A DNA stretch of 64,000 nucleotides from Novosphingobium sp. (GTDB taxonomy: Bacteria; Pseudomonadota; Alphaproteobacteria; Sphingomonadales; Sphingomonadaceae): NCBI GenBank assembly GCA_024236215.1, contig JACKKX010000001.1:1-64000 (forward strand), read 5' to 3'. The stretch's first letter is position 1; every line of letters starts with the position of its first letter. The translations under genes and the position numbers were made by a program. The notes beneath the pieces were generated by a model, which made no database searches, was not told where the DNA came from, and worked only from the letters and a program-made list of their open reading frames with translations. Of the stretch, positions 5,920 to 61,003 are shown in pieces.

Positions 5920-8160
5920 ATGACCAATATCGCCCAACCGCCGGTTCAGTCCGCAGCTGTTCAGTCGACACCCGCTCAGCGCAGCCCCCAATTCGTCGAC
6001 GAAGACGGCTTCAACTTCATGCCGTTCCTGATCCAGATCTGGCAAGCCGTGCTGCGGTGGAAGATTGTGTTGGGCGGTATCGTCATCGGCTGCCTGATCA
6101 TCGCGCTTATCGTCACTCTGCTGTCGGCACCTCTGTTCACCTCGCGCACCCGGATCGAGGTCAGCCGGGAGCAGAAGAACGTCACCAATGTCCAGGGCCT
6201 CGAAGCCCAGGATCCGAGCCGGGATCTCGAGTTCTACGCGACCCAGTATGCCCTGCTCGAAGCGGAATCGCTGGCGATCCGGGTCGTGCGCAAGCTGAAG
6301 CTCGCCGAAACCGATGACTTTTTCGAAGCGCATGGGGCAAAGCCGTCCGAAACTCTGGAAGGCCTGCGCGATCCCGCCGAACGTCGCCGGGTGCTGGCCA
6401 AGCGAGAAAAGCAGGCCTCCAAACTTCTGCTGGCCAATGTCACCATCAGCCCGATCCGCAATTCCAAACTGATCGATGTCAAGTACACCAGTCGATCGCC
6501 GGAACTCTCCGCCAGGATCGCCAATACCTGGGTCATCGAATTCATCGGCGCGACGATGGACCGGCAGTTTGCCTCGACCGCCGATGCCCGGCAATTTCTC
6601 GAAACCCGACTGGCCGAGCTGCGTCAGAAGGTGGAGCAATCAGAGCGTGCGCTTGCCGAATATGCGACTGCCAATGGCATTGTCACGCTGGATACTGTCC
6701 GGGACGCAGACGGACGAACCACAACCCAGCGCACGCTCGCGACTGTCGACCTTGAGGCCATGAACAGCGGCCTTGCCAAGGCAAAGGCAGATCGCATTCA
6801 GGCCGAAAGCCGGCTCAAGTCCTCCAATACCGACAATTCGCCGGAACTGCTGACCAATCCTGCGGTGACAACCATGCGGGCTCGCCGCGCGGAACTCTCG
6901 GCTGAATATGCCCGGCTCATGGTCCAGTTCGAGCCTGGTTATCCGGCCGCCATGGCTGTCAAGCAGCAGATCGATGCCATTGATGCGGCAATTGCTCGCG
7001 AGACCGCCCGCGTCCGGTCCAGTCGCCAGCAGGAGTATAATGAAGCGCTTGCCCGCGAGCGGGAGTTCCAAACCAAGGTCGATGGCCTGAAGCTCCAGTC
7101 CGACAAGCAGCGACAGGCCTTCATCCAGTACAATATCTATCAGCGCGAGGTCGACACGAACCGCCAGCTCTATGACGCGCTGCTCCAGCGCTACAAGGAA
7201 ATCGGCGTCGCCGGTACGGTTGGTGCAAGCAATATTGCTGTGGTCGATGTGGCGGAAGTGCCCAGCGCTCCCTCGGCACCCAGCATGCCGCTCAATCTCG
7301 CGCTTGGTTTGCTGGCCGGCCTTGGCCTTGCGGCCTTGACCGTGCTGGGCCTTGAGCAAATTGACGAGGGTATTCGCAATCCAGACGATGTGCGCAATCA
7401 TTTGAAGTTGCCGCTGCTCGGCAACGTTCCATTGTCCGAGGCCGCGCCCCTCGAAGAAATCCGCGACCCCAAGTCCGGACTGTCAGAGGCCTACTTTTCA
7501 ATCCACTCGACTCTGGCATTTGCCACCAGCCACGGCCTTCCTCGCTCACTTGCCGTTACCAGCACCCAACCCGGCGAAGGCAAGTCGACGACTTCCTTTG
7601 CTCTGGCCGAAATCATCGGTCGGACCGGCAAGAACGTGCTGTTGATCGACGGCGACTTGCGGTCGCCCTCGATCCACTCGATGGCTGGGGTCAGTAACGC
7701 TACCGGCTTTTCGAACCTGTTGGCAGGCGATGCCCTCGGCGAGCAGCATCTCCACAAGCTTGACAAGCGCGGTCTTACGGTGATGGGAACCGGCCCGATC
7801 CCCCCTGCCCCAGCCGAGCTGCTGAGCAGCAACCGGTTCACCGAAGTGATCTCGGAATTGCTGGAGCGCTATGATCACATCGTGATCGACGCCCCGCCGG
7901 TCCTTGGTCTTGCCGACGCCCCGCTTCTGGGCAAGGCAACCGAAGGTGTGATCTTCGTGGCTGAAGCCGAACGCACTTCGCGCCGGGCGATCAACAATGC
8001 GCTGCGCCGTCTGCGCGAACTCGGCGATCACCTGTTCGGTGTCGTCATTACCAAGATCGACTTCACCAAGCACAATTACGGCTACGGCTACGGCTACGGC
8101 TATGGCTACGGCTATGGGTCACGCTATGGCGAGGCCGCCGAGAACAAGCAGGACGCCTGA
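5920..8160 (+). CDS. wzc: Polysaccharide co-polymerase with tyrosine autokinase domain (Wzc/BY-kinase)
   Basis: 746 aa. Wzz domain with TM1 near residues 47-70, a long periplasmic coiled-coil region (~190-410), TM2 near 450-470, then a cytoplasmic BY-kinase: Walker A STQPGEGKSTT (~548), Walker A' LLIDGDLRSPS, Walker B HIVIDAPPVLGLAD. The C-terminal tyrosine tail is an almost pure Tyr-Gly repeat (~residues 719-737). BY-kinases control chain length and export by cycles of autophosphorylation on this tail. It follows wza by 26 bp and is coupled to the next gene (2-bp gap), so it is surely part of the EPS operon. Confidence 0.95.
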   Translation: MTNIAQPPVQSAAVQSTPAQRSPQFVDEDGFNFMPFLIQIWQAVLRWKIVLGGIVIGCLIIALIVTLLSAPLFTSRTRIEVSREQKNVTNVQGLEAQDPSRDLEFYATQYALLEAESLAIRVVRKLKLAETDDFFEAHGAKPSETLEGLRDPAERRRVLAKREKQASKLLLANVTISPIRNSKLIDVKYTSRSPELSARIANTWVIEFIGATMDRQFASTADARQFLETRLAELRQKVEQSERALAEYATANGIVTLDTVRDADGRTTTQRTLATVDLEAMNSGLAKAKADRIQAESRLKSSNTDNSPELLTNPAVTTMRARRAELSAEYARLMVQFEPGYPAAMAVKQQIDAIDAAIARETARVRSSRQQEYNEALAREREFQTKVDGLKLQSDKQRQAFIQYNIYQREVDTNRQLYDALLQRYKEIGVAGTVGASNIAVVDVAEVPSAPSAPSMPLNLALGLLAGLGLAALTVLGLEQIDEGIRNPDDVRNHLKLPLLGNVPLSEAAPLEEIRDPKSGLSEAYFSIHSTLAFATSHGLPRSLAVTSTQPGEGKSTTSFALAEIIGRTGKNVLLIDGDLRSPSIHSMAGVSNATGFSNLLAGDALGEQHLHKLDKRGLTVMGTGPIPPAPAELLSSNRFTEVISELLERYDHIVIDAPPVLGLADAPLLGKATEGVIFVAEAERTSRRAINNALRRLRELGDHLFGVVITKIDFTKHNYGYGYGYGYGYGYGSRYGEAAENKQDA
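8077..8118 (+). repeat. Hexanucleotide repeat coding the Tyr-Gly tail of Wzc
   Basis: Seven tandem 6-bp units: four TACGGC, then TATGGC, TACGGC, TATGGG. Each codes Tyr-Gly, so slippage by whole units changes the number of phosphorylatable tyrosines without shifting the frame. The first four units are identical at DNA level, which favours slipped-strand change. Confidence 0.9.
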
Positions 8161-55893: not shown

Positions 55894-56547
55894 TCACAGC
55901 CGCCCGCTTTTCCACACCACCCGCCCGATCACCTGGACCTCGTCGGGCATCAGTTCGAGCGGGCGGTAGGCCGGATTGTCGCTGACCAGCGTGATCGTAC
56001 CGGGGCGCGAAAAGTCGAGCCGCTTGACCAGCAGGGCATCTCCGGCGCGCACCACGTGGATACCGTCGCGCAGCGGACGCGGGCTGCGATCGACCAAAAT
56101 CTCGTCACCGTCACGCAAGGTGCCCTCCATCGAATCACCCTCGACCCGGATCGCGGAGAGCTGCGCGGGATCGAGCCCTTGCTGGCGCAGCCAGTGCCCA
56201 GAAAAACGAAAAGCGCCGATCGGAGCCTCATCGAAGGCCAGCGCGCCCGCCCCGGCCGAAGCCCCCAGCGGCAGACGCGGCACATCGACCCATTCGCCGC
56301 GCGGGGGCCTCGCCTGGGCCGTCTCGGGGGAAAAATCCTCCGGCGCGCCCAGCTCCGCCTCCTCCACCCCGAAGAACCGCGCCAGCGTGCGCCGGTCGGT
56401 CTCTTCCAGCTTGCGCGGACTGCCCTTGCGGATGAACTGCTGCAAATAGGTGGAATTGCGCCCGATCATCTCGGAAAGGCCAGACAGGCTGACGCCCTGA
56501 TCGCTGGCCAGTTGCAGCAGACGCGCGCGAGGATCGGTGCTTGCCAT
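55894..56547 (-). CDS. LexA-like S24-family repressor/peptidase with HTH
   Basis: 217 aa. N-terminal HTH (SLSGLSEMIGRNSTYLQQFI). C-terminal S24 domain (~residues 95-215) with catalytic Ser in IRVEGDSMEGTLRDGDEI and Lys in DALLVKRLDF, so self-cleavage is possible. Its upstream region has repeated TAGGA boxes and is the target of the IS1595-family insertion. The gene next to it before that insertion was the small HTH-like gene at 60815. Confidence 0.93.
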   Translation of the reverse strand: MASTDPRARLLQLASDQGVSLSGLSEMIGRNSTYLQQFIRKGSPRKLEETDRRTLARFFGVEEAELGAPEDFSPETAQARPPRGEWVDVPRLPLGASAGAGALAFDEAPIGAFRFSGHWLRQQGLDPAQLSAIRVEGDSMEGTLRDGDEILVDRSPRPLRDGIHVVRAGDALLVKRLDFSRPGTITLVSDNPAYRPLELMPDEVQVIGRVVWKSGRL

Positions 56548-56548
56548 G

Positions 56549-56591
56549 ATTTCATCCTATACGATGTATTTTTCCTAGACAAGTAGGATTT
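56549..56591. promoter_or_regulatory. Candidate operator/promoter of the S24 repressor with TAGGA boxes
   Basis: Three copies of TAGGA in either orientation: TCCTA at 56552, TCCTA at 56569 and TAGGA at 56584; the last two form the dyad TCCTAGACAAGTAGGA. On the minus strand TATAGG lies 11 nt before the ATG. The right end (TAGGATTT, 56584-56591) is the target duplicated by the IS1595-family element. Confidence 0.5.
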
Positions 56592-57543
56592 GGCGTTATT
56601 ATACTTGACATACCCACTCCATAGGAATAATACAGTTTCCAAGGAGTTTAAGTGTCATGTCCAATCTGTCCGCGCCGCATTTCCACGATGAGGAAAAATC
56701 CTACGAGTATGTAGAAGCGCGCCTCTGGCCGAACGGTCCTGTCTGCCCGCATTGCGGCGGCGTCGAGAAGCTGGGCAAGCTGAAAGGCAAAACCACCCGC
56801 CCTGGACTGTGGAAGTGCTACCAGTGCCGCAAGCCTTTCACCGTCAAGATCGGCACCATCTTTGAGGACAGCAAGGTTCCGATGCGCCTGTGGCTGCAAG
56901 CGATGTATCTGATCGCTGGTAGCAAGAAGGGCATTTCGAGCAACCAGCTTCACCGCATCCTTGGGGTAACCCTCAAGACCGCTTGGTTCATGTCGCACCG
57001 CATTCGCGAAGCTATGCGCGATAACGGCCTTGAGCAGTTCGGCGGCGATGGTGGCATGGTTGAGGTCGATGAGACCTTCATCGGGCGCGAGGAAGGCCGC
57101 GAGGTCAAGCAGTCCTATCATCACAAGATGAAGGTGCTTTCGCTGGTTGATCGCGCCACCGGGCAGGCCCGCTCGTTCGTGATCGACAGCGTGAGCGTTG
57201 ACCAGATCGGCCCGATTGTGATCGAGAACATCAGCCGCGAAGCCAAGCTGATGACCGATGAGCATGGCGTCTATCGCTTCCTTGCCGCCCGCTTCTCTGG
57301 CGGTCACAGCGTAGTCAGCCACCGCGCCAATGAGTATGTGCGCGGCGATGCCCATACCAACACCATCGAAGGCTTCTTCTCTATCTTCAAGCGCGGCATG
57401 AAGGGCGTCTATCAGCACTGCCAGAAGAAGCATCTGCACCGCTATCTGGCTGAATTTGACTTCCGCTATTCCAACCGCTGGTCTGAGCCCCTAGATTTCC
57501 TCCAGTGATAAGTAGAGTCCGGCCCTGACAAGGAGACGGACGA

Positions 57544-57810
57544 ATGAAGCGGAGCAGGTTCAGCGAGGAGCAGATCATCGCTGTTTTGAAGGAGCAGGAA
57601 GCGGGGATGGCGACGGCGGATGTTTGCCGCCGTCACGGGATCAGCTCGGCGACCTTCTACAAGTGGAAGTCGAAGTACGGCGGGCTGGAGGTGTCGGACG
57701 CCCGGCGGCTGCGCCAGCTGGAGCAGGAGAACGAGCGGCTGAAGAAGCTGCTGGCGGACTCGATGCTCGACAACGCCATGCTCAAGGAGATCAGCGCAAA
57801 AAAATTCTAG
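57544..57810 (+). CDS. IS3-family OrfA, copy 2
   Basis: 88 aa, identical to OrfA of copy 1. A7 slip site at 57798-57804. Confidence 0.95.
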   Translation: MKRSRFSEEQIIAVLKEQEAGMATADVCRRHGISSATFYKWKSKYGGLEVSDARRLRQLEQENERLKKLLADSMLDNAMLKEISAKKF

Positions 57811-58715
57811 CGCCCGGTGCCAGGCGGCAGGCGGTGGCTCATCTCCAGGAGGTCTTCGAGGTGAGCCAACGCCGGGCCTGTGCGGTGCTGGGCGCTGACC
57901 GGACCATGGTGCGCTATGTCAGTCGTCGGCCCGACGATGGGAAGGCGCGCGAGCGCATCCGTGAACTGGCCAGCCAGCGCCGCCGGTTCGGCTATCGGCG
58001 GCTGCACTGGCTGCTGTGCCGGGAGGGATGGACAATGAACCACAAGAAGTTCCGACGGCTCTATCGCGAGGAACGGCTGCAGGTGCGCCGCCGCGGCGGT
58101 CGCAAGCGGGCCTTGGGCACAAGGGCGCCGATGGCGATACCGCAAGGCCCCAACCAACGCTGGAGCCTCGACTTCGTGTCCGATGCCTTTGCTTGCGGAC
58201 GCAGGTTCCGGATCTTCGTCGTGGTCGATGACTACAGCCGGGAGTGTGTGCGCCTGATCGCCGATACGTCGATCTCCGGCGCGCGGGTCGGGCGCGAACT
58301 CGATGCAGCGGTCTTCGAGCGGATGGCGCGGCCCCACACCATCGTCAGCGACAACGGCACCGAGCTGACAAGCATGGCGATCCTGCGCTGGAGCAAGGAG
58401 CACAATGTCGAGTGGCACTATATAGCGCCGGGCAAGCCCTATCAGAACGGGTTCATCGAGAGCTTCAATGCGCGGCTGCGGGACGAGTTCCTGAACGAGA
58501 CGATCTTCACCAGCCTCGCACATGCCCGCCAGGAGCTGGAGGCATGGCGGCACGACTACAACCACTTCCGGCCCCACTCGAGCCTCGGGAACAGGACCCC
58601 GGCCGAGATAGGGGCAGGATCAACCGGCAAACCGTATTGGGGGCATGCCCCCAATACGGTTGTTGCCATCACGCCCAGCGAAGGGCATCAAAACGGCCCA
58701 AGGCTCTACTCGTAG
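57804..58715 (+). CDS. IS3-family OrfB (DDE transposase part), copy 2
   Basis: About 303 aa, identical to copy 1, read after a -1 frameshift at A7. DDE residues intact. Confidence 0.93.
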   Translation: MLAPGARRQAVAHLQEVFEVSQRRACAVLGADRTMVRYVSRRPDDGKARERIRELASQRRRFGYRRLHWLLCREGWTMNHKKFRRLYREERLQVRRRGGRKRALGTRAPMAIPQGPNQRWSLDFVSDAFACGRRFRIFVVVDDYSRECVRLIADTSISGARVGRELDAAVFERMARPHTIVSDNGTELTSMAILRWSKEHNVEWHYIAPGKPYQNGFIESFNARLRDEFLNETIFTSLAHARQELEAWRHDYNHFRPHSSLGNRTPAEIGAGSTGKPYWGHAPNTVVAITPSEGHQNGPRLYS

Positions 58716-58840
58716 TTGGTAGAAACTGCGGGCTCAGACCACCGCGTTGCGCTGGGCTACAATGATGCCGACCGCGCCGACGCTCTCTTGCAGGGTGTGA
58801 TTGGTAAGCGGCTAACCTATCAAACGACTGGTGCGGCCTG

Positions 58841-58963
58841 ATGCCGAAGAAGAAACTGAAAGAGACACCAAAGCAGCAGGCCGAAAGGTTCGCCGCCGAG
58901 GTCGAGCGCATGAAGGCCGCTGGCGAACTAAACCCCATAGAGGCCGATGAGGCGCTGGATTGA
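58841..58963 (+). pseudogene. Small accessory ORF of the IS1595-family element, 3'-truncated
   Basis: 40 aa visible: MPKKKLKETPKQQAERFAAE, then EVERMKAAGELNPIEADEAL. ATG overlaps the transposase stop (TGATG), so it was translationally coupled. Its present TGA is the first codon of the next IS, so the natural C-terminus is lost. Highly charged, helical; likely a small accessory or DNA-binding protein, not a family I can name. Confidence 0.7.
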
Positions 58964-59013
58964 ACCGCCCCGGGATTGCCGGAGGCCCTAACTCCTGAGA
59001 GGAAGGGTCTACG

Positions 59014-59340
59014 ATGAGCAAGACGACGAACAAGTTTGCGCCTGAGGTTCGTGAGCGGGCAGTCCGCATGGTGCTGGATCACGAGAGCGAGCATCCATCC
59101 CGGTGGGCAGCGATCACTTCGATTGCGACCATGATTGGCTGCTCGGGTCATACGCTGCTGGAGTGGGTGAAGAAGGCCGAGGTGAACAGCGGCAAGCGTG
59201 CCGGCGTTCCCACCGAGTTGGCAGACCGGCTCAAGGCGCTGGAACGCGAGAACCGCGAGCTGCGGCAGGCCAACGAGATCCTGCGCAAGGCGTCCGCATA
59301 TTTTGCCCAGGCGGAGCTCGACCGCCCGTTCAAGCGATGA
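59014..59340 (+). CDS. IS3-family OrfA (IS51-like)
   Basis: 108 aa. HTH_Tnp_1 domain ([20 protein letters not shown]) and a leucine-zipper stretch ([20 protein letters not shown]). Overlaps orfB by 4 bp (ATGA), the usual frameshift/coupling zone. Confidence 0.93.
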
Positions 59341-60242
59341 CCAGCTTCATTGATGAGCATCGGGATGAGTATGGGGTCGAGCCGATCTGCCGGGTTCTGC
59401 CGATCGCCCCATCCACCTACCATGAGCGTGTAGCACAGCGTCGCGATCCCTCGCGGCTTTCCCCACGCGCCCAACGTGACGAGGCCATGAAGCCTGAGGT
59501 TCGGCGTGTGTTCGATGCCAACTTCAAGGTCTACGGCGTACGCAAAGTGTGGCGGCAGATGCAGCGCGAGGGCTTCGATATTGCCCGATGCACGGTGGAA
59601 CGGCTGATGCGCGATTTGGGCTTGCAGGGCGTGATCCGGGGCAAGCCGGTGAAGACGACGATCAGCGACAAGGCCGCACCGTGTCCGCTCGATCAGGTCA
59701 ACCGACAGTTCCATGCCCCGGCGCCGAACATGCTGTGGGTGTCGGACTTCACCTACGTCGCGACCTGGGCAGGGTTCGTGTACGTAGCCTTCGTGATCGA
59801 TGTCTACGCCCGCTACATCGTGGGCTGGCGGGTGAGCAGGACGGCGCATGCCAGCTTCGTGCTGGATGCCCTGGAGCAGGCGATCCATGATCGGCGACCT
59901 GTCCATCGTGGCGGCCTGATCCACCACAGCGACCGCGGCAGCCAGTATGTCTCGATCAAGTATACCGAGCGCCTAGCCGAAGCCGGGATCGAGCCATCGG
60001 TAGGCAGTGTCGGCGACAGCTATGACAACGCCTTGGCCGAGACGATCAACGGTCTTTACAAGGCCGAGGTCATCCACCGGCGGGGGCCGTGGCGATCACT
60101 TGAAGCAGTGGAATACGCCACTCTCGAATGGGTCGACTGGTTCAACAACCGCCGATTGCTCGCGCCCATCGGCAATATCCCGCCGGCCGAAGCAGAGGAA
60201 CGCTATTACGCCATGCTGGACGACACCCTAATGGCCGCATAA
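59337..60242 (+). CDS. IS3-family OrfB (IS51-like) DDE transposase
   Basis: 301 aa. DDE residues: Asp in [12 protein letters not shown], Asp in [10 protein letters not shown], Glu in [16 protein letters not shown]-terminal HTH_21 ([20 protein letters not shown]). Apparently intact. Confidence 0.95.
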
Positions 60243-60243
60243 T

Positions 60244-60699
60244 TTAAACCGAATGGCCTCCGGCAATCCCGGGGCGGTTCAAGGTGTGACGACTTTCCCG
60301 GCGTAGAAGCGCGACCAAGTAGTCGGCATCGTCCTGATTTGCCATGATCGCCCGGCATCCTGCGATGTCCTGCATCTGGTAAAGCGTGTGGGGAGCCCTT
60401 CGAAGCTTCGCCCGGATCGAAGTCATTCTTTTGAGACGAGCAGCAGTCATGCCGCTGCCGACCTTTTTCACCTTAGCGGTCAGTTCCGCCCGCATATGCC
60501 GCATAGGCACTAAGTGAGCGGCGCGCCAATTGCGCGCGATCTTGAAGGTTTCGGCGGTAGTCTCGCAAGGCCAAGGCAAGCTGCCCTTAAGGAGCTTGCC
60601 TGCCCCGACAACTTGATGCTTCGAATACTGCGGAATGACGAAATCGGCCATTTCTTCAATCGCGACCGAATCGCGCCATAGGAACGGGAGGCTAATCAC
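60244..60699 (-). pseudogene. RelA/SpoT-domain protein, C-terminus removed by IS (passenger of the IS1595-family element)
   Basis: About 139 native residues, then ~12 from the IS end (LNRPGIAGGHSV). The visible part has the start of a (p)ppGpp-synthetase domain: FKIARNWRAAHLVPMRHMRA, RLKRMTSIRAKLRR (RxKxxxSixxK) and MQDIAGCRAIM (DixGxR). The residues needed later in the fold are missing, so it should be inactive. GTG start with GGGAGG at 6-nt spacing. Stand-alone proteins of this type include small alarmone synthetases and toxSAS toxins; which this was cannot be told. It lies inside the IS1595 ends, convergent to the transposase. Confidence 0.85.
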
Positions 60700-60711
60700 T
60701 TAGCGCCTCCC
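60686..60711 (-). promoter_or_regulatory. Hairpin burying the ribosome site of the RelA/SpoT-domain gene
   Basis: GGGAGGC (60686-60692) and GCCTCCC (60705-60711) pair, extended by CTAA/TTAG. On the minus-strand transcript one arm is the GGGAGG ribosome site and the GTG start is in the loop. A fold like this would keep translation low unless opened. Confidence 0.5.
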
Positions 60712-60814
60712 GGCCCGCTTGGGTATTCTTTGTATAATAACGCCTAGGATTTCGCCCTCAACAACAGGATTATTCCCACAGCGATTCGCACGGTGGGGCA
60801 ACAGGAGGGACCCA

Positions 60815-61003
60815 ATGCTGATCATGCGGATCGAGAGATTCCTGCGCGAAACCGGAATGCCCTGGACCAAATTCGGGCGCCTGGCGACGCACGATCCGCG
60901 CTTTGTGCAAGACTTGCGCAATGGCCGCACCCCCCGTCCCGAAACCGCGAAACGCGTAGAACATTTCATGAACATTTATCGGGAGGAAGCCCGTGCAGTA
61001 TGA
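60815..61003 (+). CDS. Small HTH-like protein
   Basis: 62 aa from ATG 60815 with GGAGGG about 6 bp upstream. MRIERFLRETGMPWTKFGRL and DPRFVQDLRNGRTPRPETAK resemble the short helical DNA-binding proteins of the Cro/YdaS type. Originally next to the S24 repressor gene in divergent layout, now separated by the IS1595-family element. Overlaps the next gene by 11 bp. Confidence 0.75.
   Translation: MLIMRIERFLRETGMPWTKFGRLATHDPRFVQDLRNGRTPRPETAKRVEHFMNIYREEARAV

What the first reader, a model, noticed from the sequence alone, without database searches (positions are those of the whole stretch)
56584..60752. IS1595-family transposon with a RelA/SpoT-domain passenger gene
Matching 13-bp ends and an 8-bp flanking repeat (TAGGATTT) define a 4.15-kb element that holds a transposase, a coupled small ORF and, inside the same ends, a convergent RelA/SpoT-domain gene. 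Many IS1595 relatives carry passenger genes, but an alarmone-synthetase-type passenger, which could act as an addiction or defence module, is worth attention.
Basis: partly seen in the sequence, partly recalled or inferred. Interest (0 to 1): 0.75.

Follow-up and report, generated by a model that had tools for sequence, protein, structure and literature searches.

The report
Transposon cargo: broken CapRel-like defence gene
A jumping DNA element in this bacterium carries the broken front part of a gene related to CapRel, a known anti-virus toxin switch; relatives of the element carry different genes in the same place, some of them related to other anti-virus genes.

Summary
Window 56592-60744 is an IS1595-family element: 13-bp identical tips, 8-bp target duplication (TAGGATTT), and an empty site in 17 of 19 congener loci examined. 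Correction: two IS3 elements sit inside it. One splits the transposase gene; the other, with about 738 bp missing beside it, leaves only the first ~138 codons of the RelA/SpoT-domain gene. The window copy is a double wreck.

A same-genus relative (L011) has the gene whole (374 aa), inside the same right end and facing the transposase (its left end is off the contig). The protein resembles CapRel, a fused toxin-antitoxin phage-defence protein (31% identity; ten of ten checked functional residues kept), rather than a housekeeping alarmone synthetase.

Of 40 related IS1595 loci fetched, 35 had both ends resolved; 34 of these have at least 900 bp between the transposase and the right end, holding many unrelated genes. 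In seven elements compared, the tip and a 20-nt leader are conserved and similarity drops to background after the start codon. Three relatives carry strong matches to known or candidate defence systems. Best reading: a modular one-gene cargo slot, with CapRel as one cargo. Function was not tested; defence enrichment is suggestive only.

The parts
56584..56591 (.). left copy of the 8-bp target duplication TAGGATTT
   Evidence: single copy at the empty site in L096
56592..56616 (+). left terminal inverted repeat, GGCGTTATTATACTTGACATACCCA; it contains TTGACA, which could serve as a -35 box for tnpA (inference)
   Evidence: same left end type in relatives
56657..57478 (+). first 274 codons of tnpA, IS1595 transposase
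57479..58741 (+). IS3-family element, copy 1, inside tnpA; ends TGGTCTGAGCCC; duplication CCGC at 57475-57478 and 58742-58745
58746..58841 (+). remainder of tnpA after IS3 copy 1; its stop overlaps the start of the small ORF by one base
   Evidence: uninterrupted in L011
58841..58960 (+). coupled small ORF (about 50 aa in relatives), cut by IS3 copy 2
   Evidence: no Pfam or NCBIfam match; homologues beside tnpA in relatives
58961..60281 (+). IS3-family element, copy 2, 1321 bp, 27-bp perfect inverted repeats, no target duplication here; three more copies in the genome, at least 99.9% identical
60282..60699 (-). 5' part of the CapRel-like RelA/SpoT-domain gene (about 138 codons, GTG start); truncated before the G-loop
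   Evidence: 83% identical to L011
60700..60719 (-). 20-nt cargo leader between right tip and start codon, conserved in elements with unrelated cargo
60720..60744 (-). right terminal inverted repeat
   Evidence: same tip in L011 at 5956
60745..60752 (.). right copy of the 8-bp target duplication TAGGATTT

Best explanation
This is the wreck of an IS1595-family transposon that carries a passenger gene. Its transposase would move everything between the two 25-bp ends. Behind the transposase gene and a coupled small ORF lies a one-gene cargo slot, read from the right end towards the transposase. Here the cargo was a CapRel-like fused toxin-antitoxin gene. In the intact protein the N-terminal RelA/SpoT-type domain would put pyrophosphate on tRNA ends, and the C-terminal part with a YXXY motif would hold it inactive until a phage protein displaces it, so that translation stops and the phage fails. 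Shown: ends, duplication, empty site, both IS3 insertions, the intact relative, conserved residues, varied cargo behind a conserved right end. Inferred: enzyme activity, autoinhibition, phage sensing, any benefit to host or transposon. The window copy can do none of this, since transposase and cargo are both broken.
For: Ends and empty site. IS1595 transposase. Intact 374-aa gene inside the same right end, converging on tnpA with overlapping stops. Best solved structures 9erv and 7ztb, E about 2e-32, ahead of YjbM synthetases at 1e-12 (that 7ztb is a CapRel is recalled, its record name is 'RelA/SpoT family protein'). Phage SJ46 protein: 29.5% identity over 87% of the query, 31% (104 of 335) in a global alignment. 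PADLOC PDC-S33 1.4e-96. Ten of ten functional residues named in PMC9712102 are kept in L011: A77, R79, R116, Y155, V338, L339, A341, A351, Y352, Y355. Slot and leader.
Against: The gene was found inside an IS1595 element only twice, in related genomes; eight of 11 loci show no IS1595 sign. The left end of L011 is unseen, and the rest of its tnpA was not found in that assembly. Identity to the tested CapRel is only 31%. The structure prediction failed (pLDDT 29.8). No activity was tested.
Confidence: 0.7

Rival explanations
1. The passenger is an ordinary small alarmone synthetase (RelQ/YjbM type) that makes (p)ppGpp, carried by accident.
For: The RelA/SpoT domain is shared, and YjbM structures are matched at about 2e-12.
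Against: CapRel-type chains match far better (2e-32) and over nearly the full length, including the C-terminal YPNYF part. The window fragment scores 21.3 bits against a cut-off of 320 for the YjbM equivalog (the full L011 protein was not scanned in NCBIfam).
Confidence: 0.12
2. It is mainly an addiction module that punishes loss of the transposon, as the first reader also considered.
For: Toxin and antitoxin parts lie together on a mobile element.
Against: Toxin and antitoxin are one chain, so the antitoxin part cannot decay faster than the toxin after gene loss (inference). The tested relative is described as a phage sensor.
Confidence: 0.1
3. Genes in the slot are random DNA caught between the ends, without selection for their function.
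For: Many cargo ORFs have no known relatives: 9 of 10 have no Pfam match reaching the cut-off. At E <= 1e-5 the defence signal differs little from that of flanking ORFs. ORFs were picked by length, so some may be no genes.
Against: At least 900 bp lie in the slot in 34 of 35 resolved elements. A leader at fixed spacing stands before unrelated genes. The L011 gene is open over 374 codons with its functional residues kept. GmrSD_N cargos in L060 and L083 are clearly homologous (phmmer 3e-118).
Confidence: 0.15

Closest known systems
CapRel-SJ46 and CapRel-Ebc, fused toxSAS toxin-antitoxin proteins (PMC9712102; abstract and search passages seen)
   Same: One chain with RelA/SpoT-type N-terminus and YXXY-bearing C-terminus; ten of ten checked residues kept in L011.
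   Different: 31% identity; carried by an IS1595 transposon instead of a prophage; the window copy is truncated; activity and trigger unknown.
Passenger-bearing insertion sequences ('tIS') of the IS1595 family (Siguier et al. 2009, seen only as a citation in PMC12888890 and PMC7986276; content recalled)
   Same: IS1595 transposase, inverted ends, 8-bp duplication, extra gene inside the ends.
   Different: A CapRel-like passenger, and a 20-nt leader with start codon shared by unrelated passengers; whether the 2009 paper describes such a leader could not be checked.
ISPa75-fosZ, an IS66-family tIS with a resistance gene (PMC12888890; abstract and passages seen)
   Same: A single passenger gene downstream of the transposase, inside the ends.
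   Different: Different IS family; the passenger is a fosfomycin-resistance gene.
PADLOC candidate family PDC-S33
   Same: L011 residues 21-352 match positions 4-342 of 349, E 1.4e-96.
   Different: A candidate model; one search listed no paper that names it.

Membership tests
IS1595 family | IS1595-type DDE transposase domain with N-terminal zinc ribbon | tested here: met
   PF12762 7.7e-31, PF12760 2.5e-12; NF033547 190 bits against cut-off 75. The gene itself is interrupted.
IS1595 family | inverted terminal repeats and an 8-bp target duplication (8 bp as a family trait is recalled) | tested here: met
   exact 8-bp duplications in 31 of 35 resolved relatives
IS1595 tIS | a passenger gene inside the ends | tested here: met
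   window and L011 right end; left end of L011 not seen
CapRel (fused toxSAS) | RelA/SpoT-type synthetase domain with G-loop tyrosine | tested here: met
   met in L011 (68.7 bits; Y155 kept); the window fragment is under the Pfam cut-off and ends before the G-loop
CapRel (fused toxSAS) | C-terminal autoinhibitory part with YXXY motif in the same chain | tested here: met
   met in L011 (AYPNYF); absent from the window copy
CapRel (fused toxSAS) | tRNA pyrophosphorylation, neutralisation and phage-triggered activation | not testable with these tools
   needs bench work
CapRel (fused toxSAS) | predicted fold like CapRel | tested here: inconclusive
   single-sequence prediction, pLDDT 29.8
YjbM/RelQ small alarmone synthetase | NCBIfam equivalog score above cut-off | tested here: not met
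   window ORF 21.3 bits against 320; fragment only

The most novel reading that the evidence does not exclude
In this bacterial family IS1595 elements form a plug-in system: a constant left part (transposase plus coupled small ORF) and a constant right end that brings leader and start codon, between which whole coding sequences are exchanged. The cargo pool is enriched in phage-defence genes (CapRel, PD-Lambda-5, PDC-S46, PDC-S13, GmrSD types), so that these small elements shuttle defence genes one or two at a time.
Probability: 0.4. Interest if true: 0.72.

Novelty: new variant of a known kind. Interest (0 to 1): 0.5.

Why it matters
Passenger-bearing insertion sequences and CapRel are each known. 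CapRel as cargo of a small transposon, in a slot that holds unrelated genes behind one conserved leader, would give a simple route by which single-gene defences move without phages or plasmids. It would also give a cheap way to look for new defence genes: read what lies between IS1595 ends. Of the 34 cargo ORFs scanned against Pfam, at most 16 have a match at 1e-3.

Tried and rejected
AlphaFold on the L011 protein without an alignment gave pLDDT 29.8 and was not used. A viral-contig scan with the L011 protein found no relative. The class-wide search gave 3 other hits in 385 genomes; their neighbourhoods were not examined. Plasmid relatives L016-L018 (36-46% identity) show no IS1595 transposase in the stretches fetched; the other plasmid hits and the 40 IS1595 plasmid records were not opened. 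A chromosomal origin of the RelA/SpoT gene at this site was rejected because the site is uninterrupted in congeners. The missing duplication at IS3 copy 2 means little by itself: of the three other copies only L004 has matching 3-bp flanks. The leader group was chosen by start position (L058 added by reading), so only the contrast of leader against coding part is evidence, not the shared start.

Defence enrichment is modest. Of 53 cargo ORFs listed I picked 34 (from 28 elements) for the PADLOC scan; the flank control used 86 of the 87 ORFs (one dropped: it is a second IS1595 transposase). In both sets ORFs were picked by length, so some may be no genes. At E <= 1e-50: 4 of 34 cargo ORFs (three systems) against 0 of 86. 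At E <= 1e-5: 8 of the 20 cargo ORFs listed one by one (14 were not listed one by one) against at most 9 of 86. All 12 family searches and all 10 paper searches are used.
Full report
1. What is there. Window 56592-60744 (4153 bp) is bounded by GGCGTTATTATAC in inverted orientation (20 of 25 bp alike over 25 bp) and by TAGGATTT on both outer sides. The joined flanks align in one piece across the insertion point in 17 of 19 loci from other genomes of the genus; L095 starts beyond the junction and L102 only 8 bases before it. The printed alignment with L096 shows a single TAGGATTT. These 19 are the best of the matches in 92 of 99 genus genomes. The element is a true insertion.

2. Anatomy. tnpA starts at 56657 and encodes an IS1595 transposase. 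It is cut after 274 codons by an IS3-family element (57479-58741) with a CCGC duplication; in L011 the corresponding stretch of tnpA is uninterrupted. The remainder of tnpA ends at 58841 and overlaps the start of a small ORF by one base. That ORF is cut by a second IS3-family element (58961-60281, 1321 bp), of which three more copies, at least 99.9% identical, lie in the genome; the insertion is therefore likely recent. Beyond it stands the first part of the RelA/SpoT gene (60282-60699, minus strand). Compared with L011 about 738 bp are missing at this IS3, including the end of the small ORF and nearly two thirds of the RelA/SpoT gene. The window copy has neither an intact transposase nor an intact passenger.

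3. The intact relative. One scan of the species-genome collection with the fragment gave one locus, L011, from an assembly titled Sphingomonadaceae bacterium. It holds the right tip at 5956, a 374-aa gene at 6001-7125, then, facing it, the small ORF and the end of tnpA, where the contig ends. The gene's TAA and the small ORF's TAG overlap at CTAA. The same protein at 100% identity is in G858, a genome of the window's genus, probably the same assembly; the rest of that tnpA was not found there.

4. What the passenger is. The best solved structures are 9erv and 7ztb (about 2e-32), ahead of YjbM-type synthetases (about 2e-12). The best phage hits are the two Salmonella phage SJ46 records. PADLOC's PDC-S33 matches at 1.4e-96, PHROG 4773 (unknown function) at 1.5e-69. 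In an alignment with the SJ46 protein (31%, 104 of 335), eleven positions were checked: the ten functional ones named in PMC9712102 (A77, R79, R116, Y155, V338, L339, A341, A351, Y352, Y355) are the same in L011; the eleventh, S153, which has no stated role in SJ46, differs. That paper reports that the N-terminal region pyrophosphorylates tRNA, that the C-terminal region holds it closed through YXXY, and that a phage capsid protein opens it (abstract and passages). I infer the same scheme for the L011 protein. The window fragment ends before the G-loop.

5. How rare, and how tied to the transposon. The full protein finds matches in 6 of 397 family genomes and 6 of 195 genus genomes, the window's genome counted in both: 11 loci in all. 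Only the window and L011/G858 are inside IS1595 elements. L012 (50% identity) has CGCGTACCCA, the inner part of a right tip, then a 21-nt leader and GTG; its inner 14 bases match those of L053 and L060 at 12 of 14. That 10-mer occurs 8 times in 661,377 bases of loci. I read L012 as a probable relic. The other eight loci, 26-41% identical, have no IS1595 transposase nearby and no such motif. The link could be one old acquisition.

6. The slot. DNA like the transposase end was found in 115 of 397 family genomes. I fetched 40 of the best matches, from 38 genomes. Both ends were resolved in 35: 31 with an exact 8-bp duplication, 2 with one mismatch (L049, L075), L061 with the repeat off by one base, L057 by end motif alone. 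L052, L069, L076, L085 and L088 were not resolved. The sample is biased towards well-kept copies. From the end of the tnpA alignment to the right tip there are 611-4803 bp, which include the last part of tnpA and, where present, the small ORF; only L061 is below 900 bp. The long ORFs there differ from element to element. Pfam finds DUF3800 (5 of 34), PIN (3), GmrSD_N (2) and six families with one member each (single tables). Among 13 resolved elements with transposases 63-72% identical to the window's, the cargo ORFs fall into at least eight groups by phmmer at 1e-3. In 12 of these 13 the longest cargo ORF faces the transposase; in L066 it does not.

7. A built-in start. In the window, L011, L049, L053, L056, L057 and L059 the cargo starts at the 46th base from the right tip. 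L058 has an ATG there, but its long ORF starts later in another frame. The others of this group start elsewhere (L051, L054, L055, L060) or are unclear (L050, L061, L066). For seven elements, over the 19 pairs whose cargos are not alike, mean identity is 0.80 in the tip, 0.67 in the 20-nt leader (reached by 0 of 2000 shuffles), and 0.26, 0.26, 0.26, 0.24 in successive stretches after the start codon. Similarity ends at the start codon: the element brings the leader, the coding sequence varies. That the G-rich leader is a ribosome-binding site is inference.

8. Defence cargo. L062 matches PDC-S46 at 4.7e-255, L065 both PD-Lambda-5 proteins (3.3e-178 and 2.4e-116), L087 PDC-S13 at 1.2e-111; L060, L083, L067 and L082 give weaker hits. 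With E <= 1e-50: 4 of 34 cargo ORFs (three systems) against 0 of 86 flanking ORFs; with E <= 1e-5 the difference is smaller. This supports but does not prove enrichment: the set is small and was picked by me from 53 ORFs.

9. Literature. The listings of the ten paper searches showed no title or abstract start that describes CapRel in an IS1595 element; apart from passages of five papers no text was read. The library lacks most subscription papers, among them the 2009 IS1595 paper.

10. Verdict. The wider picture, a cargo slot with a constant leader, is the part worth following.

Noticed in passing
L012:3215-4400: CapRel-like gene (50% identity to L011) with a probable relic of an IS1595 right tip and leader just before its start codon, and no transposase in the stretch fetched.
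   Followed up: partly
L065:5524-7798: An element that carries both genes of PD-Lambda-5, a two-gene defence system, in the same slot.
   Followed up: partly
window 58841-58960; homologues in L049-L051, L053-L060, L066: A conserved ORF of about 50 aa beside tnpA (MPKKK...AGELSPTEAD.ALD.LV); the window's copy has no Pfam or NCBIfam match. Function unknown.
   Followed up: no
window 55894-56547 and 60815-61003: The insertion lies between two divergent genes: one that looks like an HTH/S24-type repressor (my reading of the translation, not searched) and a small ORF. It may separate shared control regions.
   Followed up: no
right ends of L050, L063, L068, L072, L079: These share the motif GACAGGCCGG within 60 bases of the right tip, although their long ORFs differ; perhaps a second kind of leader peptide (seen).
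   Followed up: no
L060:2150-3769 and L083:2162-3838: Closely related GmrSD_N-domain cargos (phmmer 3e-118) in elements whose transposases are 57% identical; possibly exchanged cargo.
   Followed up: partly
L016:5878-7121: CapRel-like gene on a Bradyrhizobium plasmid split over two annotated ORFs beside a recombinase gene.
   Followed up: no
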